DNA from: Maribacter sp.
GTDB taxonomy: Bacteria > Bacteroidota > Bacteroidia > Flavobacteriales > Flavobacteriaceae
Assembly: GCA_020629415.1 (NCBI GenBank)
Contig: JAHDDL010000004.1
Coordinates: 36,466 to 100,465, forward strand
Length of the DNA stretch: 64,000 nt
Direction of reading: 5' to 3'
The notes under the pieces were generated by a model. That model saw only the letters and a list, made by a program, of their open reading frames with translations. It ran no database searches and was not told the DNA's origin. Positions 1-31,732 of the stretch are shown here, in pieces (the stretch's first letter is position 1; every line of letters begins with the position of its first letter). The position numbers were made by a program, and so were the translations under genes.

Positions 1-2430
1 TCTTTATATGTTATGACTCCGGAATATGGAGCTGCCACGCAATTGGAAAAAATTGACATGCTTGATTTTGCTGATTTGATAGCACTTAACAAGTTTGACA
101 AACGCGGAGCCTTAGATGCTTTACGAGATGTAAAAAAACAGTACCAGCGAAACCATCAGTTATGGGATACAGCCTTAGAAGAACTTCCGGCTTACGGCAC
201 CATTGCTTCTCAATTTAATGACCCGGGCATGAACCAATTGTATAGGGCCGTTATAGATACTTTGGTGAACAAAACGGGAGCGGAAGATCTTAGGTCTAGT
301 TTTCAAAGTTCAAGAGAAATGTCCGAGAAAATCTATATCATCCCGCCAAAGCGTACCAGGTATCTTTCTGAAATAACCGATACTATCCGAGATTATAATG
401 AAAGGACCGAAGATCAAAAAGCTATTGCCCAAAAGTTATTTAGCCTTAAAGAATCAGCTGAAATACTAAAAGACAAAGATGATGTATTAATAGCTATTGA
501 AGCTGCGAAGGAAGAACTACGATTAGACCTTGACCCACACAATCAAAAAATTATTGATGAATGGCATGAGAAGAAGGCTAATTATGAAGGAGAATTTTTC
601 ACCTATATAGTAAGAGGTAAAGAGGTGAAGGTAGCAACTACGACAAAATCTTTATCCCAGACACAAATACCAAAAGTAATCTTACCAAAATATGAAGGTT
701 GGGGAGATATCCTAAAATGGTCTTTACAGGAAAATGTACCTGGTGAGTTTCCTTTTACATCAGGCGTTTTTCCTTTTAAAAGACAAGGGGAGGATCCAAC
801 CCGAATGTTTGCAGGGGAAGGCGGACCTGAAAGAACGAATAAGCGTTTTCATTACGTTTCTAAAGGTTTGCCTGCAGCTAGGCTGTCTACGGCATTTGAT
901 TCCGTAACCTTATATGGCGAAGACCCTGGAAATCGTCCTGATATTTATGGTAAAATTGGTAATTCTGGTGTAAGTATTTGCTGTTTGGACGATGCTAAAA
1001 AATTGTATTCAGGTTTTGATCTATGTGCGCCCACAACTTCTGTTTCCATGACCATTAACGGACCTGCAGCTACTATAGCGGCATTTTTCATGAACGCAGC
1101 TATTGATCAGCAATGTGAAAAATATATTAAGGCCAATGGATTAGAAAATGAAGTAAATAGAAAAATTGACGCTATTTATAATAAATTAGGAGCTAAGCGT
1201 CCTACCTATTCTGGAGAACTGCCAGAGGGTAATGATGGTCTTGGTCTATTGCTTTTGGGTGTGACCGGTGATCAAGTATTAAAAGCTGATATCTATGAAG
1301 AATTAAAGTCGGCAGCATTGTCTAAGGTTAGAGGTACGGTACAAGCGGATATTTTAAAAGAAGACCAAGCACAAAATACCTGTATTTTTTCAACTGAATT
1401 TTCATTACGTTTAATGGGTGATGTACAACAGTATTTTATTGATCAAAAAGTGCGTAATTTTTATTCGGTCTCCATTTCTGGATATCATATTGCAGAAGCT
1501 GGTGCAAACCCTATTAGTCAGTTGGCTTTTACGCTTGCAAATGGCTTTACTTTTGTAGAATACTATATTTCTAGAGGTATGCACATTGATGATTTTGCGC
1601 CAAATCTATCTTTTTTCTTTAGTAACGGACTTGATCCTGAATATGCTGTAATCGGTAGAGTGGCACGTAGAATTTGGGCAAAAGCCATTAAGTTGAAATA
1701 TGGGGGTAATGAACGATCACAAAAATTGAAATACCATATTCAAACATCTGGTCGCTCTTTACATGCCCAGGAGATAGATTTTAATGATATTAGAACTACG
1801 TTACAAGCACTTTACGCTATTTATGATAATTGTAATTCTTTGCATACCAATGCTTATGACGAGGCAATTACCACACCTACGGAGCATTCTGTACGAAGAG
1901 CGATGGCAATACAATTAATAATTAATAAAGAGCTTGGGTTGGCTAAAAATGAGAATCCTATGCAGGGTTCTTTTATAACGGAAGAACTGACCGATTTGGT
2001 GGAAGAAGCCGTTATGGTTGAGTTTGATAGAATTACCGACCGTGGTGGAGTTCTTGGGGCAATGGAAAGTATGTACCAACGTAGTAAAATTCAAGAAGAG
2101 AGTCTTTATTACGAAACTAAAAAGCATACGGGTGAATTGCCTATTATTGGGGTAAATACATTTTTGTCTTCAAAAGGTTCACCTACCGTAATACCTGATG
2201 AAGTTATTCGCGCAACAGAAAATGAGAAGAAGGTTCAGATCAGTAATCTTGAAGAATTACAGGAAAGAAACGCTGTAATTGCAGATGCGTCATTAAAAAA
2301 ATTACAAGATGTTGCTCTAAAGAATGAAAATACTTTTGAGCAATTAATGGAAACAGCTAAATACTGTTCTTTAGGGCAAATTACACATGCTATGTTTGAA
2401 GTAGGAGGACAGTATCGTAGAAATATGTAG
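1..2430 (+). CDS. icmF: IcmF-type fused acyl-CoA mutase (3' part; 5' end outside window)
   Basis: Probable adenosylcobalamin-dependent isobutyryl-CoA mutase fused to its G-protein chaperone. The frame is open from base 1 (SLYV precedes the first Met at 13), so the gene begins upstream. What remains is the end of a MeaB/ArgK-like GTPase domain, with an NKFD guanine-specificity motif near residue 27, then a linker and the mutase substrate barrel from about residue 230. The family is usually around 1100 residues with an N-terminal B12-binding domain, which would be the missing part. The segment [12 protein letters not shown] followed by [12 protein letters not shown] is the IcmF form; true methylmalonyl-CoA mutases have a Tyr-containing PWTIRQ-type segment there. 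It may still be annotated generically as methylmalonyl-CoA mutase family. The role would be branched-chain or short-chain acyl-CoA carbon-skeleton rearrangement in the cytoplasm. Confidence 0.88.
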
Positions 2431-2530
2431 CTATTTTAAGGTTTATAAGTTGCTACTGATATGATGTTTTCAAAAATTAAAATCACATTGTTTGTTGTAG
2501 TCTCTTAACTGACACCTACTTTTACATAAA

Positions 2531-3121
2531 ATGAATATCATGCTGCATTTAAAACTTGCTACTGATCCGCGCTGGGTCAATATTGTTGAGAAAAATCTTG
2601 AAGAGATTTTAACTGATCATGCATGGTGTGAACAGAAAGCGGCAACCAATGCCATTACTATAATTACGCTTAATTCTGAATATCCTGATTTGGTGACTGA
2701 TCTGCTTCTTCTAGCTCAAGAAGAATTAGTGCATTTTCAAATGGTTCATAATATAATCAAAGAAAGGGGCTATACATTGGGTAGAGAGCGTAAGGACAGT
2801 TACGTGAACGAGTTGTATAAGTTTATGAATAAAGGAGGAAGCCGATTGCAGTCTATGGTAGATAGGCTGTTATTTTCTGCTATGATAGAGGCAAGAAGTT
2901 GCGAACGCTTTAAATTACTTTCAGAACAAATTAAAGACCCTGAATTAGCTGAATTTTATCGAGATTTAATGATTAGCGAAGCGGGTCATTATACCACATT
3001 TATTGGTTTTGCCCGTAAATATGGTCAAGATGTTGATGTAGATAAACGTTGGCAAGAGTTAGTTGAATTTGAAGCAAAAGTAATTCAGAATTACGGTAAG
3101 GATGAAACCATACATGGTTGA
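2531..3121 (+). CDS. miaE: tRNA-(ms2io6A)-hydroxylase-like diiron protein MiaE
   Basis: 196-residue ferritin-like protein matching MiaE, which hydroxylates the isopentenyl side chain of ms2i6A at position 37 of tRNA. The N-terminal segment LKLATDPRWV is typical of the family. Diiron ligands are visible as E..H pairs in QEELVHFQ (about residues 65-72) and SEAGHY (about residues 150-155), with ARSCERF between them. Length is normal. A second ATG at 2540 (MLHLKL) would give a start closer to that of relatives, so the true start may be three codons downstream. It converges on mnmE, another tRNA-modification gene, with only 17 bases between the stop codons. Confidence 0.88.
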   Translation: MNIMLHLKLATDPRWVNIVEKNLEEILTDHAWCEQKAATNAITIITLNSEYPDLVTDLLLLAQEELVHFQMVHNIIKERGYTLGRERKDSYVNELYKFMNKGGSRLQSMVDRLLFSAMIEARSCERFKLLSEQIKDPELAEFYRDLMISEAGHYTTFIGFARKYGQDVDVDKRWQELVEFEAKVIQNYGKDETIHG

Positions 3122-19873: not shown

Positions 19874-19908
19874 ATACCCAACTTTTGGGAGATGATCTGC
19901 TTTGGTCG

Positions 19909-19916
19909 TATTTTTG
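19909..19916 (+). promoter_or_regulatory. Flavobacterial -7 box TATTTTTG immediately before menD
   Basis: TATTTTTG fits TAnnTTTG and is six bases ahead of the preferred menD ATG at 19923. It suggests an internal, nearly leaderless promoter downstream of menF. It is also an argument against the longer TTG-initiated reading of menD that begins at 19902. Confidence 0.4.
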
Positions 19917-19922
19917 AACTAC

Positions 19923-21674
19923 ATGAAATACTCCGCTATACCTACCGCACAATCTATTGTTCAACATTGCCGGGCAAAGCATATTACTAATGTAGTAATA
20001 TCACCAGGATCCAGGAATGCACCTTTGACCATAGCATTTGCGGAGAATCCTTATTTTGCCTGTTATAGCATTGTTGACGAACGTTGTGCCGCTTTTTTTG
20101 CCTTGGGCATGGCGCAACAACTGCAGAAGCCTGTTGTAGTTTTATGTACTTCTGGGAGTGCTCTTTTAAACTATTATCCCGCGGTAGCAGAGGCGTATTT
20201 TAGTAATATTCCGCTATTGGTTATTTCTGCGGATAGACCGGTTTATAAATTAGGAATAGGGGATGGGCAAACAATAAATCAACAAAATGTATTTGAAAAT
20301 CATATTAGATATTCTGCCAATCTAAAACAAGATGTAAGTCATGCCACAAATAAGGTGTTGCAATATAGACCAGAGTGGATTTCTGATAAGGAAGTAAGCG
20401 ATGTTCAGCAAGAAGTTCAAAATTACAATGATGCGGAATTAAACCTTGCTTTAGAAATTGCGCTGACTACCAATACTCCAGTACACATAAATGCCCCTTT
20501 TGAAGAACCTTTGTACAATACGCTTTCAGAACCTTCAATAGCTCCTCAAATAAGTGCTATACCGGTAAAGGTGGAAGATGTGATCAGTTTAGAAGACCAT
20601 AAACGCATTTGGAATACTTCTACCCGTAAAATGGTTTTAGTTGGGGTAAATACTCCAAATATTATTACAGATATATTGCTAGAGAAATTAGCTAATGATC
20701 CAAGTGTTCTGGTGTTGACAGAAACTACATCTAACATTCACCATCCTAATTTTTTCAATAGTATTGATTCTTTAGTTGCACCTATAGAAATGCATACTAA
20801 CAGGGAATTGTTGTTTAAAAAGCTAAAACCTGAGGTGCTTATTACTTTTGGCGGACTCATAGTTTCAAAGAAAGTAAAGGCTTTTTTAAGAGATTATGTG
20901 CCAGAACACCATTGGCATGTTGGCGGGCAATTTGCAAACGATACTTTTTTCTGTTTAGAAGAACATATAAAAGTTTCTGTAAGTGATTTTTTTAGTGAAA
21001 TGTATACGGATAATACTATCACAAAAAGTGATTATTTTACGCACTGGAATTTGATTAAAAAGAACTATGAACAAAAAAGAGAGGCATATTTAAAAGAAAT
21101 TCCATTTTCGGATTTCTTGGCTTTTGAACATATTTTAACAGCTATACCAAATGACTATACCCTACAATTGGCGAATAGCTCTACCATTAGATATGCCCAG
21201 TTGTTCAACATAAACCCTACCGTAAAAGTCTTTTGTAATAGAGGTACCAGTGGCATAGATGGCAGTACTTCTACCGCTGTAGGGGCATCTGTGGTTAGTA
21301 GTGCACCTACACTTTTCATTACAGGTGATCTGAGTTTTTTTTACGATAGTAATGCATTGTGGAATAGTTACTTAAGATCTGACTTTAGGATAATTTTGAT
21401 TAATAATGGTGGTGGTGGAATTTTTAGAATACTTCCGGGAAAAGAGAATTCACATGTTTTTGAAACCTATTTTGAGACCAGGCACTCATTAAACGCAGCG
21501 CATCTTTGTGCCATGTATGGCTTTGATTATATAACGGCGAGAACATCGGTAGAGCTACAGCATCAATTGGGTAGTTTTTTCAAAGTATCTAGTCGTCCGC
21601 AATTACTGGAAATTACTACGCCTACATTAATAAACGATAAAATTTTGATTGATTATTTTCGTTTCATATCTTAG
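19923..21674 (+). CDS. menD: SEPHCHC synthase MenD
   Basis: 583 residues from the ATG at 19923 (MKYSAIPTAQSIVQH), the usual N-terminus in this phylum. MenD is a thiamine-diphosphate enzyme that joins isochorismate and 2-oxoglutarate. The N-terminal half has ITNVVISPGSRNAPLTIAF and VDERCAAFFALGMAQ, with the ThDP-activating Glu in DERC. The C-terminal ThDP/Mg motif is GDLSFFYDSNALWN to IILINNGGGGIFRILPG, the GD(L)-(x)n-NN form. An in-frame TTG at 19902 gives seven extra residues that overlap a promoter-like box and is unlikely. Confidence 0.96.
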   Translation: MKYSAIPTAQSIVQHCRAKHITNVVISPGSRNAPLTIAFAENPYFACYSIVDERCAAFFALGMAQQLQKPVVVLCTSGSALLNYYPAVAEAYFSNIPLLVISADRPVYKLGIGDGQTINQQNVFENHIRYSANLKQDVSHATNKVLQYRPEWISDKEVSDVQQEVQNYNDAELNLALEIALTTNTPVHINAPFEEPLYNTLSEPSIAPQISAIPVKVEDVISLEDHKRIWNTSTRKMVLVGVNTPNIITDILLEKLANDPSVLVLTETTSNIHHPNFFNSIDSLVAPIEMHTNRELLFKKLKPEVLITFGGLIVSKKVKAFLRDYVPEHHWHVGGQFANDTFFCLEEHIKVSVSDFFSEMYTDNTITKSDYFTHWNLIKKNYEQKREAYLKEIPFSDFLAFEHILTAIPNDYTLQLANSSTIRYAQLFNINPTVKVFCNRGTSGIDGSTSTAVGASVVSSAPTLFITGDLSFFYDSNALWNSYLRSDFRIILINNGGGGIFRILPGKENSHVFETYFETRHSLNAAHLCAMYGFDYITARTSVELQHQLGSFFKVSSRPQLLEITTPTLINDKILIDYFRFIS

Positions 21675-21708
21675 TGGTGTATTAACCATTAATTATAACA
21701 CATTTAAC

Positions 21709-22053
21709 ATGAGTAAAAGAGACGATTTAATCGAAAAGTATGCTGCAGATATCAAAGATAAATTTGGTGAGAATGCAGATATGGATTTGCTTAAAAAAGT
21801 AACTGTTGGTCTTGGACCATCTATTTACAATATTGATGCTTCTAAAGTATCTGGTAGCGATCAAAAAGAATTGGATACCGTAAAGAACAATTACTTGATC
21901 AAAAAGTTGGGTCTACCTGACAATGCTAAATTAGATGAAGCTATTGCAACTGTTATGGACAAGTACGGTTCATCTAACAGAAACAAGCACAGAGCTGTAA
22001 TTTACTACAAGCTTTGTCAACATTTCAAAAAAGAATCTGTTTACGATAAATAG
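21709..22053 (+). CDS. DUF2853 family protein
   Basis: 114 residues from the ATG at 21709 (MSKRDDLIEKYAADIKDKFG). DUF2853 members are small, charged, alpha-helical cytoplasmic proteins of unknown function, and MDLLKKVTVGLGPSIYN with the C-terminal HRAVIYYKLCQHF is the family pattern. An open frame extends upstream to 21649 into the end of menD, but those 20 residues are not part of the family. Codon use suggests good expression. A strong terminator follows and closes the menF-menD unit. Confidence 0.9.
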   Translation: MSKRDDLIEKYAADIKDKFGENADMDLLKKVTVGLGPSIYNIDASKVSGSDQKELDTVKNNYLIKKLGLPDNAKLDEAIATVMDKYGSSNRNKHRAVIYYKLCQHFKKESVYDK

Positions 22054-22071
22054 TCAGATGACAAACAAAGT

Positions 22072-22109
22072 AAAGACCGTTACCCTTTTGGTAACGGTCT
22101 TTTTTTTTA
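22072..22109 (+). terminator. Intrinsic terminator after the DUF2853 gene
   Basis: AGACCGTTACC (22074-22084) pairs perfectly with GGTAACGGTCT (22090-22100), followed by nine T. Confidence 0.93.
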
Positions 22110-22134
22110 GCTTAAATTTTAAATATTTAAAATG

Positions 22135-22142
22135 TAATTTTG
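22135..22142 (+). promoter_or_regulatory. Flavobacterial -7 box TAATTTTG, four bases before cvfB
   Basis: TAATTTTG, then CAAC, then the cvfB ATG at 22147. The layout is identical to that at 16129. It implies a leaderless transcript starting after the strong terminator just upstream. Confidence 0.42.
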
Positions 22143-22146
22143 CAAC

Positions 22147-22983
22147 ATGATAGAATTAGGACGTATAAACAACCTTGAAATTTTAAGAGACACTAGTGTG
22201 GGGCTTTTTTTGGGAGATGAAGATGGAAATGATGTATTGTTGCCAAATAAATATGTGCCAACAGCATATGAAATAGGTGAGAAAATTAAAGTTTTCTGTT
22301 ATTTGGATTATGATGAAAGACCAGTTGCAACTACCTTGGAACCGGACATAATGTTAGGGGAATTTAGATTATTACAAGTAGCGGAGGTAAACGAATTTGG
22401 CGCATTTATGCAATGGGGCCTTGAAAAACATCTTTTGGTTCCATTTCGTGAACAAAGGGTAAAGATGAAAGAAGGGCAGTGGTATGTTGTCCACTGTTAT
22501 TTAGATGATCGTTCCGGTAGATTAGTGGCTTCTAACAAGCTCGATAAATTTTTGAATAATGATACCATTGACCTTAAGGAATGGGAAAAGGTAGATTTGG
22601 TGGTTACCAGACAAACAGATTTAGGTTGGGAGGTCATTGTAAACGAAAAACACAAAGGTCTGGTTTACTTTAATGAAGTATTTAAACCAATTAATATTGG
22701 TGATGTAATACCTGGTTGTATTAAGACCATTAGGAAAGATAATAAATTAGATATTTCATTACAGCCATTAGGTGCAAAAGTACTGGAGCCTGCAGCTAAA
22801 AAAATATATGAAGTTCTGGTAGATAGCGGTGGGTTTTTAGGTTTGCATGACAAATCTGCACCCGAAGAAATTAGAGACGTTTTTCAGATGAGCAAAAAGA
22901 CCTTTAAAAAAGGTCTGGGTACATTATATAGAGAACGTAAAATCAAAATAGAATCTGATGGTATTACTCTTTTGGACGATTAA
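22147..22983 (+). CDS. cvfB: CvfB-type S1 RNA-binding protein
   Basis: 278 residues. The N-terminus IELGRINNLEILRDTSVGLFLGDEDGNDVLLPNKYVP is typical of CvfB (YitL-like) proteins. Three S1-like OB folds follow, with FRLLQVAEVNEFGAFMQWGLEKHLLVPFREQ as the clearest, and a C-terminal winged-helix segment (FQMSKKTFKKGLGTLYRERKIKIE). CvfB is an RNA-binding regulator linked to virulence in staphylococci; its role in Bacteroidota is not known. In some flavobacteria menB occupies this interval, but this protein has no crotonase motif. Confidence 0.92.
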   Translation: MIELGRINNLEILRDTSVGLFLGDEDGNDVLLPNKYVPTAYEIGEKIKVFCYLDYDERPVATTLEPDIMLGEFRLLQVAEVNEFGAFMQWGLEKHLLVPFREQRVKMKEGQWYVVHCYLDDRSGRLVASNKLDKFLNNDTIDLKEWEKVDLVVTRQTDLGWEVIVNEKHKGLVYFNEVFKPINIGDVIPGCIKTIRKDNKLDISLQPLGAKVLEPAAKKIYEVLVDSGGFLGLHDKSAPEEIRDVFQMSKKTFKKGLGTLYRERKIKIESDGITLLDD

Positions 22984-23155
22984 ACTAAAATTGTAAGAAT
23001 ATTCAATTCTTATTGATTTTCAACAGAATATTTCAAATAATCGTCTAGTTTTTTGTAATACCTTACATTTAATTTTATTTTTGTTGTAAATAAAAAGTTA
23101 TTAACAATTTTTGGCTTACATTTAAGTTTTAAGCTTAAAAATTACCCCTGTAATT

Positions 23156-23764
23156 ATGCCTTTTATAGAAGAAAGTGATTTATTGGAATTACATAAAGAT
23201 GTCGATAAGGCCCAGATTATTAATGAGCGCTTATTGGATCAAATAAAGTTCAAGAATAAAGAATTAAAGAAGAGTAAGATTCAGCGAAATATATTGGCTG
23301 GTATAACTGCCTTTTTTATTATTGGCGGTTTGGCTTTTACCTCTTACACGGCAGGTATCTCAAGTTCAGGAGGGTTTAGTAGAAACTCATCGAACGATTT
23401 AGTTTTAACTTCTATCGATAGTGTAGATGCCATTAGAACCCGACTTGAAAATTTAAAAGAACAAAACGAAGAATTAAGTCTTGTAAAAGAGTTTTACCTG
23501 GCTAAGGAATTTTTGCAAAAAGAAAAGATATATTCTGTTCAGGTTAAGTCTTTTGTAGATAATAACGTGACCTTGGCTTCAGAAGCTTTGACCAATACGC
23601 TCTTTGTAAAAACAAACCCTTTTTATTCTTATTCATTAGGTAATTTTGAGACTTTAGAAGAAGCTCAATCTTTTAGAAAACAATTAGTGGATATTGGTTT
23701 TGGAGATGCTTTTGTTGCTTCTTACCAAGATGGTAAAAGAATTCAAATAGAAGATCCGTTTTAG
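23156..23764 (+). CDS. Single-pass membrane protein with C-terminal SPOR-like domain
   Basis: 202 residues. A charged cytoplasmic coiled coil (to about residue 43) is followed by one membrane segment (NILAGITAFFIIGGLAFTSYTAG, about 45-68), a second coiled coil, and a C-terminal SPOR-like fold (IYSVQVKSFVDNN to YSLGNFETLEEAQSFRKQLVDIGF). SPOR domains bind glycan strands stripped of peptide side chains at division sites, so a cell-envelope role is likely. Its stop overlaps the GTG start of menA by one base (TAGTG), so menA translation is coupled to it. Confidence 0.82.
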   Translation: MPFIEESDLLELHKDVDKAQIINERLLDQIKFKNKELKKSKIQRNILAGITAFFIIGGLAFTSYTAGISSSGGFSRNSSNDLVLTSIDSVDAIRTRLENLKEQNEELSLVKEFYLAKEFLQKEKIYSVQVKSFVDNNVTLASEALTNTLFVKTNPFYSYSLGNFETLEEAQSFRKQLVDIGFGDAFVASYQDGKRIQIEDPF

Positions 23765-24672
23765 TGACTAAAGTTAGAGCTTGGCTAAACGCAGCAAGAC
23801 TTAGAACGCTCCCTTTATCCATTTCTGGAATACTTGTAGGCAGTGCTTTGGCCGCTTATCATGGGATTACCAACAGCACTATTTTTATATTGGCGATATT
23901 AACTACTATTGGGTTACAAGTTACCTCTAATTTTGCCAACGATTATGGAGATGGCGTAAAAGGTACGGATGGTGATGATAGATTAGGACCCAAACGTGCT
24001 TTGCAGAGCGGTCTTCTCACAGCTGCTCAATTAAAGACAGGTATTTATATTAGTATCGTTGTAAATGCAATTCTCATTGTATCGCTAATTATTACGTCTT
24101 TTGGTTTAGATAACATGCTATATCCCTTGTTGTTCTTATTATTGGGAGCTTTTGCAATTTGGGCCGCAATAACATACACGGTAGGTAAATCTGCCTATGG
24201 TTATAATGGACTTGGCGATATTTTTGTATTCATATTTTTTGGGTTGGTAAGTGTTTTAGGTTCTATGTTCTTATACTTAAAAGCTATTTCCTTTATGACC
24301 TTTTTACCGGCAATTTCTATAGGTCTTTTGAGTGTTGGTGTCCTAAACCTTAATAATATGCGGGACTATAGATCTGATGCTGCTGTAGGTAAGAACACCA
24401 TGGTCGTAAAAATGGGTTTACCAAGTGCAAAAAAATATCACTACACATTGTCAATTATCTCGTTTTTATGTCTGTTTTGTTTTTTGATTACAACAAATGG
24501 ATCGCAATTGCGTTATGTATGTCTTGTAGGCTACCTTTTCATATTTGTACATTTAAGAAAAGTAGCACGTACTAATAATGAGGCAGAACTAGATCCAGAG
24601 CTTAAAAAATTGGCTTTAAGTACCTTTTTTATCGCCCTGTTGTTTTTTATTAGTTATTATTATTTTTTGTAA
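23764..24672 (+). CDS. menA: 1,4-dihydroxy-2-naphthoate polyprenyltransferase
   Basis: 302-residue integral membrane prenyltransferase of the UbiA family. The first Asp-rich motif NFANDYGDGVKGTDGDDR and the second NLNNMRDYRSDAAVGKNT bind Mg-pyrophosphate. At least seven further hydrophobic segments are visible. It attaches the polyprenyl chain to DHNA to make demethylmenaquinone. It begins with GTG at 23764 (VTKVRAWLNAARLRTLPLS), overlapping the preceding gene, and the RLRTLPLS segment is the usual family start. Confidence 0.95.
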   Translation: MTKVRAWLNAARLRTLPLSISGILVGSALAAYHGITNSTIFILAILTTIGLQVTSNFANDYGDGVKGTDGDDRLGPKRALQSGLLTAAQLKTGIYISIVVNAILIVSLIITSFGLDNMLYPLLFLLLGAFAIWAAITYTVGKSAYGYNGLGDIFVFIFFGLVSVLGSMFLYLKAISFMTFLPAISIGLLSVGVLNLNNMRDYRSDAAVGKNTMVVKMGLPSAKKYHYTLSIISFLCLFCFLITTNGSQLRYVCLVGYLFIFVHLRKVARTNNEAELDPELKKLALSTFFIALLFFISYYYFL

Positions 24673-24677
24673 TTTTG
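24670..24677 (+). promoter_or_regulatory. Flavobacterial -7 box TAATTTTG before the LytTR regulator gene
   Basis: TAATTTTG overlaps the menA stop codon, 27 bases ahead of the TTG start of the response regulator. It would let the regulator be transcribed apart from menA. Confidence 0.4.
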
Positions 24678-24704
24678 AGTATAACCCACAAACCAATTTA
24701 AACC

Positions 24705-25469
24705 TTGGAACAACCCATAAAAATTCTAATTGTTGAGGATAATGTGATCATCGCCGATGATATGCAATCTATGCTAGAGGAAATAGGATATGAAATTGTA
24801 GATAATGTAATTGTCTACGAACAAGCTGTAGAGGTTTTAAAGACCCAACAGGTAGATCTTGTTTTAATTGATATCATTCTTGCATCTGATAAAACGGGTA
24901 TTGATTTAGGGAAACATATTAGGGAGAATTATGATATTCCTTTCATTTTTGTAACTTCTAACTCTGATAGGGCAACAGTTGAAAATGCAAAGACAGTGAA
25001 GCCAAATGGTTACCTGGTTAAACCATTTGAGCAGCAAGATCTATATACTTCTATAGAAATAGCATTATCCAATTTTATTTACGGTAAGCAGACTGCGGCA
25101 AATAATGGTGCGGCAAATACTGCCAACACTGAAGATGTTGCAATGTCCAATTCTATATTAAAAGACTCAATTTTCGTAAAAAAGCAACATCTGTATTATA
25201 GAATACAATTTGGTGATATTCAATTTATAAAAGCAGATAATGTTTATTTGGAGGTAAATACGATCGATAAAAAATTCTTGGTACGTTCTCCTTTAAAAGA
25301 TTATTTAGAGAAATTACCGCAGAATAAATTTTATAGAGCGCACAAATCATATATCGTAAATGTTGATCATATAGATGCAATTAATTCTAAGGATATTATG
25401 ATAAATAATACATTGATTCCGATTTCTAAAGATTTTAAGGAATTTATAATTTCAGCTATGAATTCTTAA
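24705..25469 (+). CDS. LytTR-family response regulator
   Basis: 254 residues. The receiver domain covers about residues 1-122, with ILIVEDNVIIADDM (acidic pocket E11/D12), the phospho-acceptor D56 in LVLIDIILAS, and LVKPFEQ (Lys near 107). A linker rich in Ala, Asn and Thr follows. The LytTR DNA-binding domain spans about residues 155-254 (IFVKKQHLYYRIQFGDIQFIKADNVYLEV, FYRAHKSYIVNVDHIDAI). It starts with TTG (read as MEQPIKILIVEDN); there is no better start. A sensor kinase gene follows 406 bases downstream, and between the two lie four 21-bp-spaced direct repeats that could be its binding sites. Confidence 0.94.
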   Translation: MEQPIKILIVEDNVIIADDMQSMLEEIGYEIVDNVIVYEQAVEVLKTQQVDLVLIDIILASDKTGIDLGKHIRENYDIPFIFVTSNSDRATVENAKTVKPNGYLVKPFEQQDLYTSIEIALSNFIYGKQTAANNGAANTANTEDVAMSNSILKDSIFVKKQHLYYRIQFGDIQFIKADNVYLEVNTIDKKFLVRSPLKDYLEKLPQNKFYRAHKSYIVNVDHIDAINSKDIMINNTLIPISKDFKEFIISAMNS

Positions 25470-25494
25470 TTAGAAAACTAATATTTTTTAAAAG

Positions 25495-25519
25495 ACACCT
25501 TTTTAAGGTGTTTTTTTTT
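25495..25519 (+). terminator. Intrinsic terminator after the LytTR regulator gene
   Basis: ACACCT (25495-25500) pairs with AGGTGT (25506-25511), followed by a T-run to 25519. It separates transcription of the regulator from the downstream kinase. Confidence 0.8.
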
Positions 25520-25531
25520 GAATTTTACTTA

Positions 25532-25603
25532 GATGAAATGTATTTTATCATCGATAAAGTGTATATTTTTATCGATGAAATGCTTATAAAAAGAGATGAA
25601 ATA
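25532..25603 (+). repeat. Four 9-bp direct repeats with exact 21-bp period, overlapping perfect dyads (putative LytTR operator array)
   Basis: GATGAAATG (25532), GATAAAGTG (25553), GATGAAATG (25574) and GATGAAATA (25595) start exactly 21 bases apart; the first two full 21-base units are identical at 16 positions. Two dyads are superimposed: an 11-bp perfect inverted repeat, TCATCGATAAA (25548-25558) with TTTATCGATGA (25568-25578), and TGAAAT-AG-ATTTCA (25597-25610). LytTR proteins are known to bind pairs of ~9-bp direct repeats separated by ~12 bases, that is on the same face of the helix two turns apart, which is the period seen here. Assigning the adjacent regulator as ligand is inference. 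Confidence 0.7.
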
Positions 25604-25875
25604 GATTTCACAACAACTATTGCGGGTTACACAACAATTAATCTTAACACCAATGTGTTCTTTTTAATTTTGAGATATTAGGAATCGCGGCTATTTTTCT
25701 TCAAAACTTAGTTTTAAGTGTAGAATTTGTTTCGGTTTTCTATGAATTTTTAAAAAGTACGTAGAACACGCTTTTTGAGCTGTAGGTTATTTGAAAATCA
25801 TGTAACGAAGGCTCACAACAAAAATTTAGTAGATTCAACAATAAGATTTAAGTTTGATTCTGCTTTTATTGAGAT
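25604..25875 (+). promoter_or_regulatory. Leader/promoter region of the sensor kinase gene
   Basis: No gene here. CACAACAA occurs at 25609-25616 and 25630-25637 (again 21 bases apart) and at 25814-25821. Two TAnnTTTG -7 candidates are present: TAATTTTG at 25665-25672 and TAAGTTTG at 25849-25856. The first sits 27 bases after the second CACAACAA box, a plausible activator-to-promoter distance. The second is 19 bases before the kinase ATG. I could not find a convincing TTG -33 element for either. Confidence 0.4.
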
Positions 25876-27846
25876 ATGAAAAAACAGAATATTTTGAGAT
25901 TATTGTGCACTTTGGTTTTAGGTGTATATACGTGCCTAGTTTTTGCACAAGATAATACTACAACTCAAAATGAAGACTACTACAAACAGTTTCAAGATTT
26001 AGAGAATGGTGAATTACGTTCTTTTTTCTTTTTCAATACGCCAAATCGTTACAATCAGAATTCTCCGTATGATTGGTTAGATACCGTAAAGGTTTACTTG
26101 AACAGTTCTGAAAAAACCAAAGATTCCGTATCTATCCGTAATTATCAACTTATTGAGTCCCAAATTTATTATGATTTAGGTAACTATGAGAAAAGTTTGG
26201 CAATTGCAAGACCTTTATATGACGACTTGTTAAAGTTAGATGTGGAGTCTAAAAAGACTATTCTGGGCATTTTGGACAATAATTATAAAATGCTTGAATT
26301 ATATGACAAGCAAATAGAGATTAGAAGGGTTAAACGTGAATTAGGTTTCACTGATAATGTCGCCTTTTATGACATTTATGCAAGTTTAGGTCAGTATAGA
26401 AAGGCTATGCGAGATTATATGACCGAAGAAAAGAAAGTACTTAAAGACGATGATTATTACGGTCAAGCAATCTACAACAATACTATAGGTGATTATTTAA
26501 GATTAGATAAATCAACGGCTACAGCGTTAAGCTATTATAAAAAAGCCGAAGGACTAATAAAAGTTTTTTTAAGTGATGTCACAAATGAGCGCTCTGATAA
26601 AGAAATTGCTGACGGAAGAATTCTTAACGGGTTGATTATTGGTAATATTGGTAAAAGCCATGTTCAGTTAGGTGAGTATGAAAAAGCTATTCCGTTTTTA
26701 GAAGAAAGTAGGGATATCATCAAGAAATACAATAAAAGTAAATTCTCTTCTGATATTATTGAAAATACCTTGGCTCTAGCAGAATGTTATTTAAAGTTGG
26801 ATGATTATGCCAAAGCTACCGATTATTTGAGCGATGACCTTAATCCTATAAAGTCTGATAATATTTTAAAGCGTAATAGAATTTATGCAGATTATTACTT
26901 TAAAACCGGGGATTACAAAAACTCTACGGTATACCTTAAGAAGAACATAAGAATTAGGGATTCTATTGATGCATTAGCATCGAATATCAAGAATCAGCAA
27001 TTAACTTCTGTTGTTGCCCAAGATTTAGAGAATTCTAGAAAAACTATGGAGCAACAAAAAGCTCAGTTAGAAGAATCTAGAAAAGATATTAAGGCAAGAG
27101 ATGATAAGATTAGTTTGGTGTTTGTATCCTTGATTTTTACACTTATAGGTTTTGCCGGTTTAGTATATGCGTATTTAAAGAGTATTAAAAACCAACGTTT
27201 AATTGCCGAGCAGAAATTTATTATTGAAAATTCATTAGTAGAGAAAGATTCATTACTTAAAGAGATACATCATAGGGTTAAAAATAACCTTCAAATGGTC
27301 TCTAGTTTGTTGAGCTTACAAACTAAAAATACAAGAAGTAAAGCTGCTATTGCTGCATTGGAGGAAGGCAAGAGTAGGGTAAAAGCAATGGCCCTTATAC
27401 ATCAGAAGTTATACCAAAACGATGATTTATCGGTAATTGAGATGCAGGGCTATATTGAAAGTTTAATCAATAGTATTCAATCGGTTTACAAAAAAGGCGG
27501 ACATAATATTAATATTACCATTGATGCGGAAGGAGTAGAATTGGATATTGATAGAGCAATACCATTTGGACTTATATTAAACGAGTTGGTTTCTAATTCA
27601 TTTAAATATGCATTCCCGAACGATGATAGTGACGGAAAGATATATATTCATTTACGAAAAATAGCTGGTCAAGAAGGTTTCTTTGAGTATACCGATAATG
27701 GAATAGGTTTACCTGAAGATTCAGACGAAAGGGCAAGCTCCTCAATGGGTATACGTTTAATGAGCAGATTGGCAAATCAGCTTCAAACTTCATTGAATAC
27801 AGATAAAACCCAAGAAGGTGTGCGTTTCTGGTTTAATTTTAAATAG
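25876..27846 (+). CDS. Membrane sensor histidine kinase: signal peptide, TPR region, TM segment, HisKA_2, HATPase
   Basis: 656 residues. A signal peptide (LRLLCTLVLGVYTCLVFAQ) leads a periplasmic part of about 360 residues built of TPR-like helical pairs (for example YGQAIYNNTIGDYLRL, GNIGKSHVQLGEYEKAIPFLEES, ALAECYLKLDDYAKATDYL). A coiled coil and one membrane segment near residues 414-436 follow. The kinase core has the HisKA_2 box KEIHHRVKNNLQMVSSLLSL (His 465/466) and an HATPase with ILNELVSNSFKYAF, EYTDNGIGLP and MGIRLMSRLANQL. Such kinases differ from the LytS-type partners usual for LytTR regulators. Gene order and the repeat array between them suggest the pair is nonetheless cognate. 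Confidence 0.93.
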   Translation: MKKQNILRLLCTLVLGVYTCLVFAQDNTTTQNEDYYKQFQDLENGELRSFFFFNTPNRYNQNSPYDWLDTVKVYLNSSEKTKDSVSIRNYQLIESQIYYDLGNYEKSLAIARPLYDDLLKLDVESKKTILGILDNNYKMLELYDKQIEIRRVKRELGFTDNVAFYDIYASLGQYRKAMRDYMTEEKKVLKDDDYYGQAIYNNTIGDYLRLDKSTATALSYYKKAEGLIKVFLSDVTNERSDKEIADGRILNGLIIGNIGKSHVQLGEYEKAIPFLEESRDIIKKYNKSKFSSDIIENTLALAECYLKLDDYAKATDYLSDDLNPIKSDNILKRNRIYADYYFKTGDYKNSTVYLKKNIRIRDSIDALASNIKNQQLTSVVAQDLENSRKTMEQQKAQLEESRKDIKARDDKISLVFVSLIFTLIGFAGLVYAYLKSIKNQRLIAEQKFIIENSLVEKDSLLKEIHHRVKNNLQMVSSLLSLQTKNTRSKAAIAALEEGKSRVKAMALIHQKLYQNDDLSVIEMQGYIESLINSIQSVYKKGGHNINITIDAEGVELDIDRAIPFGLILNELVSNSFKYAFPNDDSDGKIYIHLRKIAGQEGFFEYTDNGIGLPEDSDERASSSMGIRLMSRLANQLQTSLNTDKTQEGVRFWFNFK

Positions 27847-27848
27847 GC

Positions 27849-28643
27849 TTAACGAACTTTACTGTTCATAACCACTTTATGTAAAAGTCTAGGGAAGAAT
27901 CTTTTGAGGTAAATACCAAATTTTTCTTTTCCGCCTATGTAAGTTTCAAATCGTTTCTTTTTAATTGCAGAGATTATTTTTTGTGCACATTCGTTAACCG
28001 GCATTCCGTTTTCTGTGGCATTGTCTTCTTTTTGTAATGCAGAACCATCACCCGTTAATGCATTTTTAGCCACATTGGTTTGTATAAAGCCAGGGCAGAT
28101 GATAGAAACATTGATATTGTCTTTTTCATGCTCCATTCGCAATGCGTCAAAGAAGCCATGTAACGCATGTTTGGCACCACAATACCCAGATCGATAAGGA
28201 GATGAAAATTTACCCATTAAACTAGTAACGGTAACAAAATGGCCGCTCTTTTGAGCTATAAAATGGTCAAGTAAGTGTTTGGTCAATTTTATGGTACCCA
28301 GATAATTAACGTCTATCATTTGTTGGTAGACTTCAAATTTTGTGTCAACTATAAGGGAACGCTGGCTTAATCCGCCATTGTTGATTAAAATATCAATATG
28401 CCCATAAATTTTAATAGCTTTTTGAGTAACGATTCCTAAAGAATTGAAGTCCGTTAAGTCTAGAGGCAATATGGTTACATGATCTTGATATTTGCACTTG
28501 TTTTTTACTTTTAATAGCACAGTTTCCCTTCTTGCGGAAAGTATAATTTTAGCGCCAAGTTCGTTTAGCTGGTATGCTAGTTCTTCGCCAATTCCTGAAG
28601 ATGCTCCTGTTATCCAGATTACCTTATTTTCTATACTGTCCAT
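27849..28643 (-). CDS. Short-chain dehydrogenase/reductase (SDR)
   Basis: 264 residues of the classical SDR type. WITGASSGIGEEL is the NAD(P)-binding TGxxxGIG motif (about residues 10-20), ILINNGGLSQ the NNxG strand, VTSLMGK holds the catalytic Ser, and SGYCGAKHAL the YxxxK pair. The C-terminal GKEKFGIYLKRFFPRLLHK is basic and could touch the membrane, as in DHRS7-like reductases of lipid substrates. The substrate is unknown. It converges on the kinase gene with a 2-base gap and is divergent from menC. Confidence 0.92.
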   Translation of the reverse strand: MDSIENKVIWITGASSGIGEELAYQLNELGAKIILSARRETVLLKVKNKCKYQDHVTILPLDLTDFNSLGIVTQKAIKIYGHIDILINNGGLSQRSLIVDTKFEVYQQMIDVNYLGTIKLTKHLLDHFIAQKSGHFVTVTSLMGKFSSPYRSGYCGAKHALHGFFDALRMEHEKDNINVSIICPGFIQTNVAKNALTGDGSALQKEDNATENGMPVNECAQKIISAIKKKRFETYIGGKEKFGIYLKRFFPRLLHKVVMNSKVR

Positions 28644-28688
28644 AACATCATGTTTAAACTCAAAATATAGTTAAATTTGAAGGATAAT

Positions 28689-29741
28689 ATGAAAGCAACA
28701 TTTAAAAAGTATCTTTTAGATTTTAAAAATCCTAGCGGAACTTCTAGGGGAATTCTGCGAACTAAAGAAACGTGGTTTTTGATTTTGGAGGATGAAGGTA
28801 AATGGGGAATAGGTGAATGCGGACTTTTTAGAGGACTTAGTTTTGATGATGTGCCTGAATATGAGCAAAAATGTAATTGGGTTGCGGAGAATATTGAATT
28901 AGGGGAAGCTAAATTAGTAGAACAGTTAAGAGATTTTCCTAGTATTCAATTTGGTTTGGAACAGGCATTTTTGTCCATGCGTTCTAATAATCCTTTTCAT
29001 CTTTTTGATTCCACTTTTTTAGAACACCAACAACCAATTTCAATTAATGGTCTGGTTTGGATGGGCGATAAAGAATTTATGCATCAGCAAATAGAAGATA
29101 AGCTAAAAGATGGTTTTTCATGTATTAAAATGAAGATTGGTGCCATTGATTTTGATACGGAAATTGCATTGCTTAAATCTATTAGAGAGCGTTACTCTAA
29201 AGATGAAATTGAATTGCGAGTAGATGCTAACGGTGCATTTTCTCCAAAAGAAGCCTTGTCCAAGCTAGAAGTATTGTCAAAACTTAATTTACATTCAATT
29301 GAGCAACCTATAAAACAGGGACAATGGGAAGAAATGCAAAGACTTTGTAAAAGTACACCGTTGCCAATTGCTTTAGATGAAGAATTAATTGGTGTAGTAG
29401 ATGTAACGAAAAAGGTAGACTTGCTACAAACTATACAACCACAGTATATTATTTTAAAGCCCAGCTTGGTAGGTGGTTTTGCAGGTAGTAATGAATGGAT
29501 TAAAATTGCCGAAAAGAATAAAATTGGTTGGTGGGTTACCAGTGCATTAGAGAGTAATATTGGTTTAAATGCCATTGCACAGTGGACCGCAACGTTAGGT
29601 AACCAAATGCCACAAGGTTTGGGTACGGGATCTTTATTTACAAATAATATAGATAGTCCGTTAGAAGTAAATAACGGAGGGTTGTTTTACAACAGCTCTA
29701 AAAAATGGAATAAAAATTTAATAGATAGTTTATGTATATAG
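28689..29741 (+). CDS. menC: o-Succinylbenzoate synthase
   Basis: 350 residues from the ATG at 28689 (MKATFKKYLLDFKNPSGTSRG). It belongs to the enolase superfamily: the KxK catalytic lysine lies in FSCIKMKIGAI, metal ligands are in LRVDANGAFS, SIEQPIKQGQ and ALDEEL, and the second catalytic Lys is in YIILKPSLVGGF. It dehydrates SHCHC to o-succinylbenzoate. A TTG 12 bases upstream (28677) gives four extra residues but overlaps a TAAATTTG promoter-like box (28672-28679), so I prefer the ATG; AAGGA six bases before it could aid initiation. The CPBP gene overlaps its 3' end by ten bases. Confidence 0.94.
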   Translation: MKATFKKYLLDFKNPSGTSRGILRTKETWFLILEDEGKWGIGECGLFRGLSFDDVPEYEQKCNWVAENIELGEAKLVEQLRDFPSIQFGLEQAFLSMRSNNPFHLFDSTFLEHQQPISINGLVWMGDKEFMHQQIEDKLKDGFSCIKMKIGAIDFDTEIALLKSIRERYSKDEIELRVDANGAFSPKEALSKLEVLSKLNLHSIEQPIKQGQWEEMQRLCKSTPLPIALDEELIGVVDVTKKVDLLQTIQPQYIILKPSLVGGFAGSNEWIKIAEKNKIGWWVTSALESNIGLNAIAQWTATLGNQMPQGLGTGSLFTNNIDSPLEVNNGGLFYNSSKKWNKNLIDSLCI

Positions 29742-30652
29742 AGCAAGGTTATAAAGGAGATATTGGATTATGGAAATATTTAATAATTCCTGGTTGTTTT
29801 ATTGGTTTTATGATTTTGAACTATATAGCAATCTTGTTATCTCCGGTTAGTGTTGAAGATAGTATGGCACAGATGATTAATAGCTTCGGCTCTAACCTGG
29901 TTTTAATTATAATATTGGCTCCATTGGCAGTTGGTTTACTTGTGGTGCTTGGTTGGACAAAATTAGTACACTCTCAAAGTATAACTTCTTTAACTACATC
30001 TCGAAAGAGAATAAGTTGGAAAAGAATCTTTTTTTCTTTTGTATTATGGGGAGTTTTAACTGTTTTAATGACATTAATAGCAGTTTATTTGTCACCTGAG
30101 GATTATGTTTTTAATTTTAAACTGGTACCATTTTTAACTTTAGCAGTGATAGGTATCTTACTAGTTCCTTTGCAAACAAGTTTTGAAGAATACTTATTTA
30201 GGGCACATATGATGCAGGGTTTAGGTATTGCGGTGAAAAATAGATGGGTACCTTTAATAGTTACCTCGGTGTTTTTTGGGTTAATGCATTTAGGTAATCC
30301 TGAAGTAGAGAAGTTAGGGTATGGGATAATGGTGTATTATATAGGAACTGGTTTTTTTCTTGGTATTATTACGCTTATGGATGAGGGGTTAGAATTGGCT
30401 TTAGGTTTTCATGCAGCCAATAATTTAATTGGAGCTCTATTAATGACTGCAGATTGGACCGCTTTTCAAACAAATTCAATTTATCGAGATATTTCAGACC
30501 CAGTTTTAGGTTGGGATATTTTAGTTCCTGTATTTATTACTTTTCCTATTCTTTTACTCATCTTTTCAAAAAAATATGGATGGACCGATTGGAAAGAAAA
30601 ATTAACCGGTAAGGTTCTATCTAAAGAAGAATTTTTATTGACACAAGAGTAA
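29732..30652 (+). CDS. CPBP-family intramembrane metalloprotease
   Basis: 306-residue polytopic membrane protein. The Abi/CPBP motifs are TSFEEYLFRAHMMQG (motif 1, EExxxR), VFFGLMHLGNP (motif 2, FxxxH) and LGFHAANNLIGAL (motif 3, HxxxN). Family members cleave substrates within the membrane or act in bacteriocin self-protection and prenyl-protein processing. In flavobacteria a CPBP gene often lies between menC and menE. Here it overlaps menC by 10 bases and precedes menE by 18, so it is part of that operon although no menaquinone role is established. Confidence 0.9.
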   Translation: MYIEQGYKGDIGLWKYLIIPGCFIGFMILNYIAILLSPVSVEDSMAQMINSFGSNLVLIIILAPLAVGLLVVLGWTKLVHSQSITSLTTSRKRISWKRIFFSFVLWGVLTVLMTLIAVYLSPEDYVFNFKLVPFLTLAVIGILLVPLQTSFEEYLFRAHMMQGLGIAVKNRWVPLIVTSVFFGLMHLGNPEVEKLGYGIMVYYIGTGFFLGIITLMDEGLELALGFHAANNLIGALLMTADWTAFQTNSIYRDISDPVLGWDILVPVFITFPILLLIFSKKYGWTDWKEKLTGKVLSKEEFLLTQE

Positions 30653-30670
30653 AACTAAAATTTATTCAAA

Positions 30671-31732
30671 ATGAAAATACACCCTAGTTTTTCAATTCAA
30701 GGTAGGACAATTTCTTTTGATGATTTAAAAGAGGTTGGTTATAGTTTAATTAAAGAAGGCGAGGAATTTGAAAAGCATATAGGTGAATTTCTTTTAGATT
30801 GGATAGATGATTTGCCAACACTTTCTGTAAAAACTTCAGGATCTACGGGCGCTCCAAAGACTATACTATTGAAGAAAGAACAGATGGTAAATAGCGCTCT
30901 TGCAACCGGTAATTATTTTAACCTTAAGCCTGGGTCAACTGCTTTACTCTGTCTGCCCGCAACATATATAGCTGGTAAAATGATGCTTATAAGAGCAATG
31001 GTTTTGGGCCTAAATATTTATTTAGTGCCACCAAGTTCATACCCATTGGAAGGTATTACGGATTCTTTTGATTTTGCGGCTATGGTACCTTTACAGGTAA
31101 GTAACTCTTTATCTAAACTACATCAAATACATAAATTAATTATTGGTGGTGCACCTATTTCTAATTCAATAAGAGAAGCTTTAAAGGGTGTTGATAATAG
31201 CATTTATGAAACCTATGGTATGACGGAAACCATTACTCATATCGCTATAAAACCGTTAAACGATAAAGAAGTTGAAGATGCTCCTTTTACGGTGTTGCCA
31301 AATGTAGAACTTGCTACAGATGATAGAGGTTGTTTGGTAATTAATGCTTCAGAAATTTCAGACGAAACGGTGGTAACCAATGATGTGGTCCAAATGCTTT
31401 CAAAAACTAAGTTTAACTGGTTGGGCAGACTTGATAATGTTATTAATTCTGGTGGGGTAAAGTTGCATCCGGAACATATTGAAAAAGTAATATCAAACTA
31501 TATAGATACTCCGTTTTTTGTTGCCGGTGTTACAGATAATGAATTAGGGCAAAAAGTGGTTTTAGTGGTTGAAGATGCAGAAATTAAAGACATTCAGAAA
31601 ATTATTGATGGTATTTCTGAATTCAAAAAATTTGAGAAACCTAAAACGATTTTGATAGCTAAAGAATTTCAAAGAACCGATAGTGGAAAAATACAACGTT
31701 CTAAAACTGTACAACAAATTTTGAAGCCTTAA
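30671..31732 (+). CDS. menE: o-Succinylbenzoate-CoA ligase
   Basis: 353-residue acyl-adenylate-forming enzyme. LSVKTSGSTGAPKTILLKK is the P-loop motif, IYETYGMTETITHIA the A5-type motif, WLGRLDNVINSGGVKLHPEHIE the hinge, and FQRTDSGKIQRSK supplies the C-terminal catalytic Lys. It is about 100 residues shorter at the N-terminus than E. coli MenE, the usual compact form in Bacteroidota. It makes OSB-CoA, the substrate of MenB. Last gene of the menC-CPBP-menE unit. Confidence 0.93.
   Translation: MKIHPSFSIQGRTISFDDLKEVGYSLIKEGEEFEKHIGEFLLDWIDDLPTLSVKTSGSTGAPKTILLKKEQMVNSALATGNYFNLKPGSTALLCLPATYIAGKMMLIRAMVLGLNIYLVPPSSYPLEGITDSFDFAAMVPLQVSNSLSKLHQIHKLIIGGAPISNSIREALKGVDNSIYETYGMTETITHIAIKPLNDKEVEDAPFTVLPNVELATDDRGCLVINASEISDETVVTNDVVQMLSKTKFNWLGRLDNVINSGGVKLHPEHIEKVISNYIDTPFFVAGVTDNELGQKVVLVVEDAEIKDIQKIIDGISEFKKFEKPKTILIAKEFQRTDSGKIQRSKTVQQILKP

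What the first reader, a model, noticed from the sequence alone, without database searches (positions are those of the whole stretch)
25532..25637. Array of direct repeats with exact 21-bp period between a LytTR regulator and its kinase gene
Four copies of a GATGAAATG-like 9-mer start at 25532, 25553, 25574 and 25595, three successive steps of exactly 21 bases. A second motif, CACAACAA, is repeated 21 bases apart at 25609 and 25630, in the same register of the helix. LytTR domains bind pairs of ~9-bp direct repeats separated by ~12 bases, which gives this period. Two perfect dyads are superimposed (11-bp arms at 25548-25558 and 25568-25578; TGAAAT-AG-ATTTCA at 25597-25610), so the site can be read as direct repeats or as operators. 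Four or more LytTR sites in a row are unusual and suggest cooperative control of the sensor kinase gene by its regulator.
Basis: partly seen in the sequence, partly recalled or inferred. Interest (0 to 1): 0.75.

Follow-up and report, generated by a model that had tools for sequence, protein, structure and literature searches.

The report
Switch site of a small-RNA regulon
The repeated DNA between a marine bacterium's response-regulator gene and its sensor-kinase gene is a real, conserved control region, and one of its two repeat motifs also stands in front of apparently undescribed small-RNA genes in related genomes, which suggests that this sensor system works largely through small RNAs.

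Summary
The repeats are real: 0 of 2000 dinucleotide shuffles of the gap give four copies at 21 bp. But they are two motifs. Motif A (GATGAAATG; 25532, 25553, 25574) is kept in sister Maribacter; its fourth copy (25595) is not. A-like pairs occur in 127 of 149 family genomes, 102 of them without this regulator, so A is probably another factor's site. Motif B (CACAACAA; 25609, 25630) is the best candidate site of the adjacent LytTR regulator: 77 of 78 distinct regulator-kinase gaps carry a B pair 35-36 bp before a TAnnTTTG-like box, and exact B pairs occur in 26 of 26 family genomes with the regulator against 19 of 123 without. Elsewhere B pairs precede terminator-ended RNA genes: sRNA-A (23 invariant nucleotides, covarying terminator stem; B pair in 60 of 60 upstream regions) and sRNA-B, often in tandem. 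Eleven loci scanned gave no Rfam match. Most likely the regulator activates its kinase gene here and small RNAs in trans, as VirR, RgaR and AgrA do in Firmicutes. Binding and transcription are untested; Arenibacter loci lacking the neighbouring kinase lack the B pair too.

The parts
24705..25469 (+). REC-LytTR response regulator gene (254 aa)
   Evidence: Pfam Response_reg 74.8 bits and LytTR 63.1 bits, both over cut-off; ORF
25490..25519 (+). intrinsic terminator of the regulator gene (CACC...GGTG + T run), so the region downstream has its own promoter
   Evidence: sequence; hairpin and T run kept in the alignment of 21 Maribacter gaps
25532..25540 (+). motif A copy 1 (GATGAAATG)
   Evidence: within 2 mismatches in 21 of 21 close Maribacter rows
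25553..25561 (+). motif A copy 2 (GATAAAGTG)
   Evidence: within 2 mismatches in 12, within 3 in 19 of 21 rows
25574..25582 (+). motif A copy 3 (GATGAAATG)
   Evidence: within 2 mismatches in 16, within 3 in 19 of 21 rows
25595..25603 (+). motif A-like copy 4 (GATGAAATA), not conserved
   Evidence: within 2 mismatches in 3 of 21 rows
25609..25616 (+). motif B half-site 1 (CACAACAA), about -68 from the predicted P1 start
   Evidence: at most 1 mismatch in 21 of 21 rows; pair kept in 77 of 78 distinct gaps
25630..25637 (+). motif B half-site 2 (CACAACAA), about -47 from the predicted P1 start
   Evidence: at most 1 mismatch in 21 of 21 rows
25665..25672 (+). P1 -7 box TAATTTTG (fits TAHHTTTG), 35 bp after half-site 2
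   Evidence: TAAATTTG or TAATTTTG in 21 of 21 rows; consensus from PMC6847099 passages
25752..25777 (+). conserved block AAAAAGTACGTAGAACACGCTTTTTG in the predicted kinase leader; possible pairing site for sRNA-A (UGUUCU-CGUA)
   Evidence: alignment; 8 variants in 21 rows; duplex test (modest, post hoc)
25814..25821 (+). third CACAACAA, 35 bp before the P2 box
   Evidence: at most 1 mismatch in 20 of 21 rows
25849..25856 (+). possible second promoter box P2 (TAAGTTTG), about 15 nt leader; G at -9 departs from TAHHTTTG
   Evidence: TAnnTTTG in 20 of 21 rows; G at -9/-10 reported as virtually absent in F. johnsoniae
25876..27846 (+). TPR-HisKA_2-HATPase_c sensor histidine kinase gene (656 aa)
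   Evidence: Pfam TPR_12, HisKA_2, HATPase_c over cut-off; ORF

Best explanation
The gap is the promoter-regulatory region of the kinase gene, with two stacked direct-repeat elements. The CACAACAA pair (half-sites 21 bp apart, at about -47 and -68 of promoter P1) is the binding site of the neighbouring REC-LytTR regulator, which when phosphorylated activates P1 and so its own kinase gene. The same regulator activates a set of unlinked RNA genes with the same pair: in this genome three copies of sRNA-A and two sRNA-B-like genes, and probably some protein genes. In related genera one or two of these RNA genes lie in this very gap; in the window's lineage they do not, and P1 then reads into the kinase gene through a leader of about 200 nt. 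The upstream GATGAAATG array is a second input, read by a different, more widespread factor. Shown: the repeats, their spacing, conservation, the promoter-box geometry, and the co-occurrence of regulator, B pairs and sRNA-A. Inferred: that this regulator binds B, that it activates, that the RNAs are made and regulate in trans, and who reads A.
For: B pair plus -7-like box at 35 bp (102 places) or 36 bp (7) in 77 of 78 distinct gaps; mononucleotide shuffles gave 0.07 gaps on average, at most 2, in 200 rounds. Exact B pairs in 26 of 26 family genomes with the regulator (168 places; reversed-pattern control 12, hand-tallied) and in 19 of 123 without (19 places; control about 45, hand-tallied). 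A mistyped pattern with period 22 hit 13 of 149 genomes, only one of them among the 26: an accidental spacing control. sRNA-A 31-mer in 22 of 149 genomes, reversed control 0; all 22 carry the regulator, and the same 22 hold the 61 strong covariance-model hits. B pair upstream of 59 of 59 distinct sRNA-A copies, 60 of 60 with the third own copy (mononucleotide shuffles mean 1.06, at most 4 of 60). Terminator stem of sRNA-A: 11 of 14 pairs with changes on both sides, covariation score 0.416 against 0.243 shuffled, 0 of 500. Geometry matches C. difficile RgaR at spoZ, whose repeats were mutated at G-51 and G-72, 21 bp apart (PMC10602386 passages).
Against: No binding or expression data. Regulator, B pairs and sRNA-A mark one clade, so co-occurrence is phylogenetically confounded. 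Each genome has many LytTR paralogues (20-37 matches in most Maribacter), so another could read B. L028 keeps both genes without the pair. Of 15 loci dropped because no kinase lay within 1.5 kb, 9 with 4 kb held have neither kinase nor B pair, 3 have a B pair, 3 are cut short: the pair follows the kinase/RNA genes rather than the regulator gene. The reversed-sequence control still hit 15 of 78 gaps, because the motif read backwards resembles itself; periods 18 and 24 also scored in 54 and 49 of 60 for the same reason. In 23 of 60 sRNA-A upstream regions no TAnnTTYR box was found. Four regulator genomes (59-75% identity) have no strong sRNA-A.
Confidence: 0.65

Rival explanations
1. One reading: the GATGAAATG array itself is a chain of binding sites of the adjacent regulator, which binds cooperatively to control the kinase gene; the CACAACAA pair is accessory.
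For: A copies are 21 bp apart, lie next to the regulator gene, and three are conserved in sister species. On the other strand the core CATTTCAT equals that of the E. coli LytTR regulator YpdB site GGCATTTCAT, whose two copies are also 21 bp apart in the oligonucleotide printed in PMC4847170 (passages).
Against: A pairs (up to 3 mismatches) occur in 127 of 149 family genomes against 33 of 149 for the reversed control, 102 of them without this regulator. sRNA-A promoters carry B without an obvious A (by eye). A spacing in the gaps is 21 in 24 and 20 in 15 of 78, whereas B is 21. A-like pairs without a nearby B lie in other intergenic regions of this genome (5 of 27 places looked at).
Confidence: 0.12
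2. Motif B is read by another factor of the same clade (a LytTR paralogue or an unrelated regulator), and the neighbouring regulator is not its reader.
For: Twenty or more LytTR-like matches per genome; no binding data; 9 loci that lack the neighbouring kinase also lack B although the regulator is there.
Against: 26 of 26 against 19 of 123 genomes; B lies between this regulator and its kinase in 77 of 78 distinct gaps and survives in orthologues of 71-75% identity (L218, L220).
Confidence: 0.18
3. The short conserved elements are not trans-acting RNAs but leaders, attenuators or bare terminators.
For: Some P1 sites read into the kinase gene through a leader, as in the window; no RNA data. Weak hits of the model are mostly generic terminators.
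Against: 23 invariant nucleotides in 56 sequences of many genera next to a covarying terminator; own copies lie in intergenic regions with no ORF reading out of them; sRNA-B cassettes stand in tandem, each with its own B pair and terminator.
Confidence: 0.1

Closest known systems
VirR/VirS with VR-RNA (C. perfringens) and RgaR/RgaS with SpoZ (C. difficile); passages of PMC2838878 and PMC10602386
   Same: Response regulator on paired direct repeats just upstream of the promoter at a fixed distance; protein genes and small-RNA genes in one regulon; RgaR-spoZ contacts 21 bp apart.
   Different: Firmicutes, AgrC-type membrane kinases tied to peptide signals, other repeat sequences and promoters; here Bacteroidota, a TPR-HisKA_2 kinase, a TAHHTTTG promoter box, and RNA families in several copies.
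AgrA-RNAIII (S. aureus); passages of PMC3673130. FasA-FasX is recalled, only FasX is named in the passages seen
   Same: LytTR regulator that drives its own locus and a regulatory RNA encoded beside it.
   Different: No sequence relation tested; peptide quorum sensing; a single large RNA.
YpdB of E. coli (PMC4847170, passages)
   Same: Its half-site GGCATTTCAT shares CATTTCAT with the reverse strand of motif A, and both repeat at 21 bp.
   Different: Motif A is read here by an unidentified factor; motif B has no such likeness.
Rfp RNAs of Flavobacterium psychrophilum, such as Rfp18 (PMC9723704: abstract, passages and section 15)
   Same: Small RNAs of Flavobacteriaceae found by genome-wide mapping.
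   Different: No sequences were compared: supplements could not be opened, so a relation to sRNA-A or sRNA-B is untested.

Membership tests
LytTR-type response regulator (window 24705-25469) | REC domain plus LytTR DNA-binding domain | tested here: met
   Pfam Response_reg and LytTR over their cut-offs
LytTR-type operator | two direct repeats of 9-11 nt with 11-13 nt between | tested here: met
   motif B pair, period 21 with an 8-nt core and 13 between; period scan of 10-44 gives 67 of 78 gaps at 21, 15 at 18 (self-overlap), at most 1 elsewhere; definition
LytTR-type operator | bound by the regulator | not testable with these tools
   needs footprint or gel shift
LytTR-type operator | fixed position just upstream of the promoter | tested here: met
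   35 bp (102) or 36 bp (7) from half-site 2 to the -7-like box
Bacteroidota primary promoter | -7 box TAHHTTTG | tested here: met
   P1: TAATTTTG or TAAATTTG in 21 of 21 rows; consensus
Bacteroidota primary promoter | -7 box TAHHTTTG at P2 (25849) | tested here: not met
   TAAGTTTG has G at -9; P2 is therefore not filed as a promoter
LytTR-controlled small-RNA regulon (VirR/VR-RNA, RgaR/SpoZ, AgrA/RNAIII kind) | RNA gene with own terminator and own regulator box | tested here: met
LytTR-controlled small-RNA regulon (VirR/VR-RNA, RgaR/SpoZ, AgrA/RNAIII kind) | regulator-dependent transcription and targets of the RNA | not testable with these tools
   no expression data; only a duplex test for one possible target
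Known Rfam families | match at the gathering score | tested here: not met
   0 matches in 11 loci that hold sRNA-A and/or sRNA-B or the window gap; window 24600-26000 only chance-level matches

The most novel reading that the evidence does not exclude
A Bacteroidota two-component system whose main output is a set of redundant small RNAs: the regulator drives its kinase and several sRNA-A and sRNA-B genes from one kind of promoter, sRNA-A pairs through UGUUCUCGUA with the conserved block in the kinase leader and closes a feedback loop, and the GATGAAATG array lets a family-wide factor that also stands before gliding/secretion genes in other genera act on the same switch.
Probability: 0.2. Interest if true: 0.8.

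Novelty: new variant of a known kind. Interest (0 to 1): 0.6.

Why it matters
LytTR regulators that work through small RNAs are known from Firmicutes; here the same logic appears in Bacteroidota, where few small RNAs have an assigned regulator. It supplies two RNA families, an exact operator-promoter grammar (CACMACA-N14-CACAACA, 35 bp, TAHHTTTG) that can be searched in any genome of this clade, and a testable regulon. It also points to a second, family-wide direct repeat that stands before gldJ in about half of the first set of genera checked (15 of 29) though not in this genome.

Tried and rejected
Four-site cooperative array for the adjacent regulator: set aside, because copy 4 is not conserved and A pairs are family-wide. 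Same helical register for A and B: rejected by arithmetic (77 bp). sRNA-A inside the window gap: not found; in the close Maribacter the gap after P1 has no CCCCAAA element either. Hairpin around 25752-25777 as an RNA terminator: unlikely, with five T only; not tested by folding. Motif A as a T9SS/gliding motif in this species: own gldJ and gldK lack it; in other genera 15 of 29 gldJ loci (30 fetched, one start not found, one cut short) and 3 of 19 in a second set enriched for the regulator clade exceed all their mononucleotide shuffles. The 12 A places were picked for low mismatch or tripled copies and are not a random sample; one was scanned as GldJ and one as GldK, two more resemble that GldJ by eye. 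Pairing of sRNA-A with the kinase leader: shuffled segments as good as the real one were 1 of 150 (8 close loci) and 0 of 150 (28 others) for the 17-nt core, 3 and 11 of 150 for a 13-nt seed, 2 and 3 of 150 for the free segment; the segments were chosen after seeing the match. PDB search of the regulator: the 60 best of 123 matches listed align with its receiver domain or the stretch just after it; none reaches the LytTR domain. Literature: no paper in the held library contains the sRNA-A core in three spellings or the B pattern; searches listed none on this system, from listings only. B pairs in own genome: 38 places with up to 2 mismatches against 22 for the reversed control, so weak sites there are not trusted. 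The order-wide model search found sRNA-A in 6 of 196 genomes, the only one outside the family weak (E 7.5e-6).

Full report
Observation. The gap 25470-25875 lies between a REC-LytTR regulator gene and a TPR-HisKA_2 kinase gene. The repeats are at the stated places, and four copies at 21 bp are not a chance product (0 of 2000 shuffles). A terminator (25490-25519) ends the regulator gene, so the kinase needs its own promoter.

Relatives. Searches (60 genomes; 80 loci) gave 110 loci with the regulator. For 95 a kinase match lay within 1.5 kb; after removal of identical gaps 78 distinct gaps remained, the window among them. The 15 dropped loci are told: 3 are cut within about 210 bp, 3 have a B pair with box (in L057 the kinase is 1.8 kb away), and 9 (most titled Arenibacter) have neither a kinase nor a B pair although 4 kb are held.

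Two motifs, not one. In 21 close Maribacter gaps, motif A copies 1, 2, 3 and 4 are within 2 mismatches of GATGAAATG in 21, 12, 16 and 3 rows; both B half-sites are within one mismatch of CACAACAA in 21 of 21, and the box at 25665 is TAATTTTG or TAAATTTG in 21 of 21. Over the 78 gaps, a B pair (at least 12 of 16 letters) with a box (at least 5 of 6 fixed letters) 34-36 bp on is found in 77; the distances are 35 (102 places) and 36 (7). Shuffled gaps give 0.07 on average; gaps read backwards give 15, because the motif resembles its own reversal. The miss is L028. The A spacing is looser: 21 in 24 gaps, 20 in 15.

Promoter geometry. With the box at -12 to -5 (PMC6847099 passages), P1 starts near 25677 and the half-sites begin at about -47 and -68. 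This is the VirR/RgaR layout: boxes upstream of the promoter at a fixed place, and in spoZ contacts at -51 and -72. A third CACAACAA lies 35 bp before TAAGTTTG at 25849; its G at -9 is against the refined consensus, so P2 is uncertain.

Small RNAs. In many relatives the gap holds short elements after such promoters: 26 of 80 loci have sRNA-A (up to 5 substitutions), and 14 of 80 the CCCCAAAnCTTAYC motif of sRNA-B. The sRNA-A 31-mer is in 22 of 149 family genomes with no reversed-control hit, three times in the window's genome, outside the window. In 56 aligned copies 23 nucleotides are invariant and the terminator stem covaries (the structure was derived from these sequences, but slid controls fall to 0.14 or less from 0.416). 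The covariance model gives 61 hits with E below 1e-9, in exactly those 22 genomes; at E up to 0.01 it rings in 73 of 149, mostly as a generic terminator. Within Maribacter 35 of 36 genomes have it at E up to 1e-7, 29 of 36 with three copies; the one miss is the least complete genome (64%). In an order-wide sample 6 of 196 genomes match, five in this family. A B pair stands upstream of 59 of 59 copies and 60 of 60 with the third own copy; the box at 35 bp was found in 34 of 60, at 56 bp in 2, at 29 bp in 1, and not in 23. sRNA-B-like genes, with CCCCAAAT motifs and a terminator, are in the window's genome at L117 and L122 and as tandem arrays of two or three cassettes in six of eight regions chosen for clustered B pairs; not every cassette keeps the CCCCAAAT motif. 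Rfam: no match at the gathering score in 11 loci.

Who reads B. Regulator orthologues (E up to 1e-60) are in 26 of 149 family genomes, including all 22 with sRNA-A; the other four are 59-75% identical. Exact B pairs are in 26 of 26 of these genomes, 168 places, 1 to 14 each, and in 19 of the other 123, one each. The accidental period-22 pattern hit 13 of 149, one of the 26. This ties B to the regulator, but both mark one clade, so the tie is not independent of descent.

Who reads A. A pairs with up to 3 mismatches are in 127 of 149 genomes (reversed control 33 of 149), 102 of them without the regulator; some of these matches lie in coding sequence. On the other strand the core is CATTTCAT, as in the YpdB site GGCATTTCAT with its 21-bp step: a lead, not a test. 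Triple A copies stand before gldJ in some genera, and A pairs precede CCCCAA-type RNAs in L316 and L317, outside the regulator clade. Own gldJ and gldK lack A.

Mechanism. Best supported: phosphorylated regulator on the B pair activates P1 and the kinase gene (positive loop), and the RNA genes in trans; A adds a second input. A leader-sRNA-A pairing (block 25752-25777; perfect 12-mer TTTACGAGAACA in L068) would add feedback; the duplex statistics are modest and post hoc. Candidate protein targets with B pairs in this genome include an LRR protein (L113) whose homologue in L293 also has one.

Verdict. The finding is real, its interpretation half right, and the wider context is more interesting than the array: a LytTR-type small-RNA regulon in Bacteroidota, new in its parts and known in its kind. 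Papers were seen as listings, passages or named sections, as stated; none was read whole.

Noticed in passing
window 19902-31732: The regulator-kinase pair sits among genes that look like menaquinone biosynthesis (a UbiA prenyltransferase at 23764-24672 by Pfam; MenD-, MenC- and MenE-like neighbours named from recall of their sequence only).
   Followed up: no
L151 about 1440-1830 (own genome C11:74307): Motif A copies stand before a 43-residue secreted-looking peptide gene (MKNKRTFLASIALGVFLLAMTAPIVDIDNQELNIEKKKITKRI) with its own terminator, without motif B.
   Followed up: no
L128 and L129 (own genome C12): Two neighbouring genes with PAS-like N-termini carry weaker B pairs (2 mismatches) directly upstream, one with a TAnnTTTG box at 35 bp.
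   Followed up: partly
L322, L323, L324, L320: Motif A, in three copies 21 bp apart in the first three, stands before gldJ-like genes and as a pair before gldK: a possible family-wide control element of gliding/type IX secretion.
   Followed up: partly
L220 about 2217-3100: A regulator orthologue (about 67-71% identity) is followed by several tandem CACAACA promoters with CCCCAAAACCCTCATTTGTTATA-type elements and terminators: a longer RNA cassette array.
   Followed up: partly
L176 (G114:C640): Three tandem sRNA-A-like cassettes downstream of the regulator, the terminator part diverged.
   Followed up: no
L223 about 2080-2340 (own genome C1): Next to an sRNA-A copy lies a tandem repeat of GGAAACT-type units with a stretch of N in the held assembly.
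   Followed up: no
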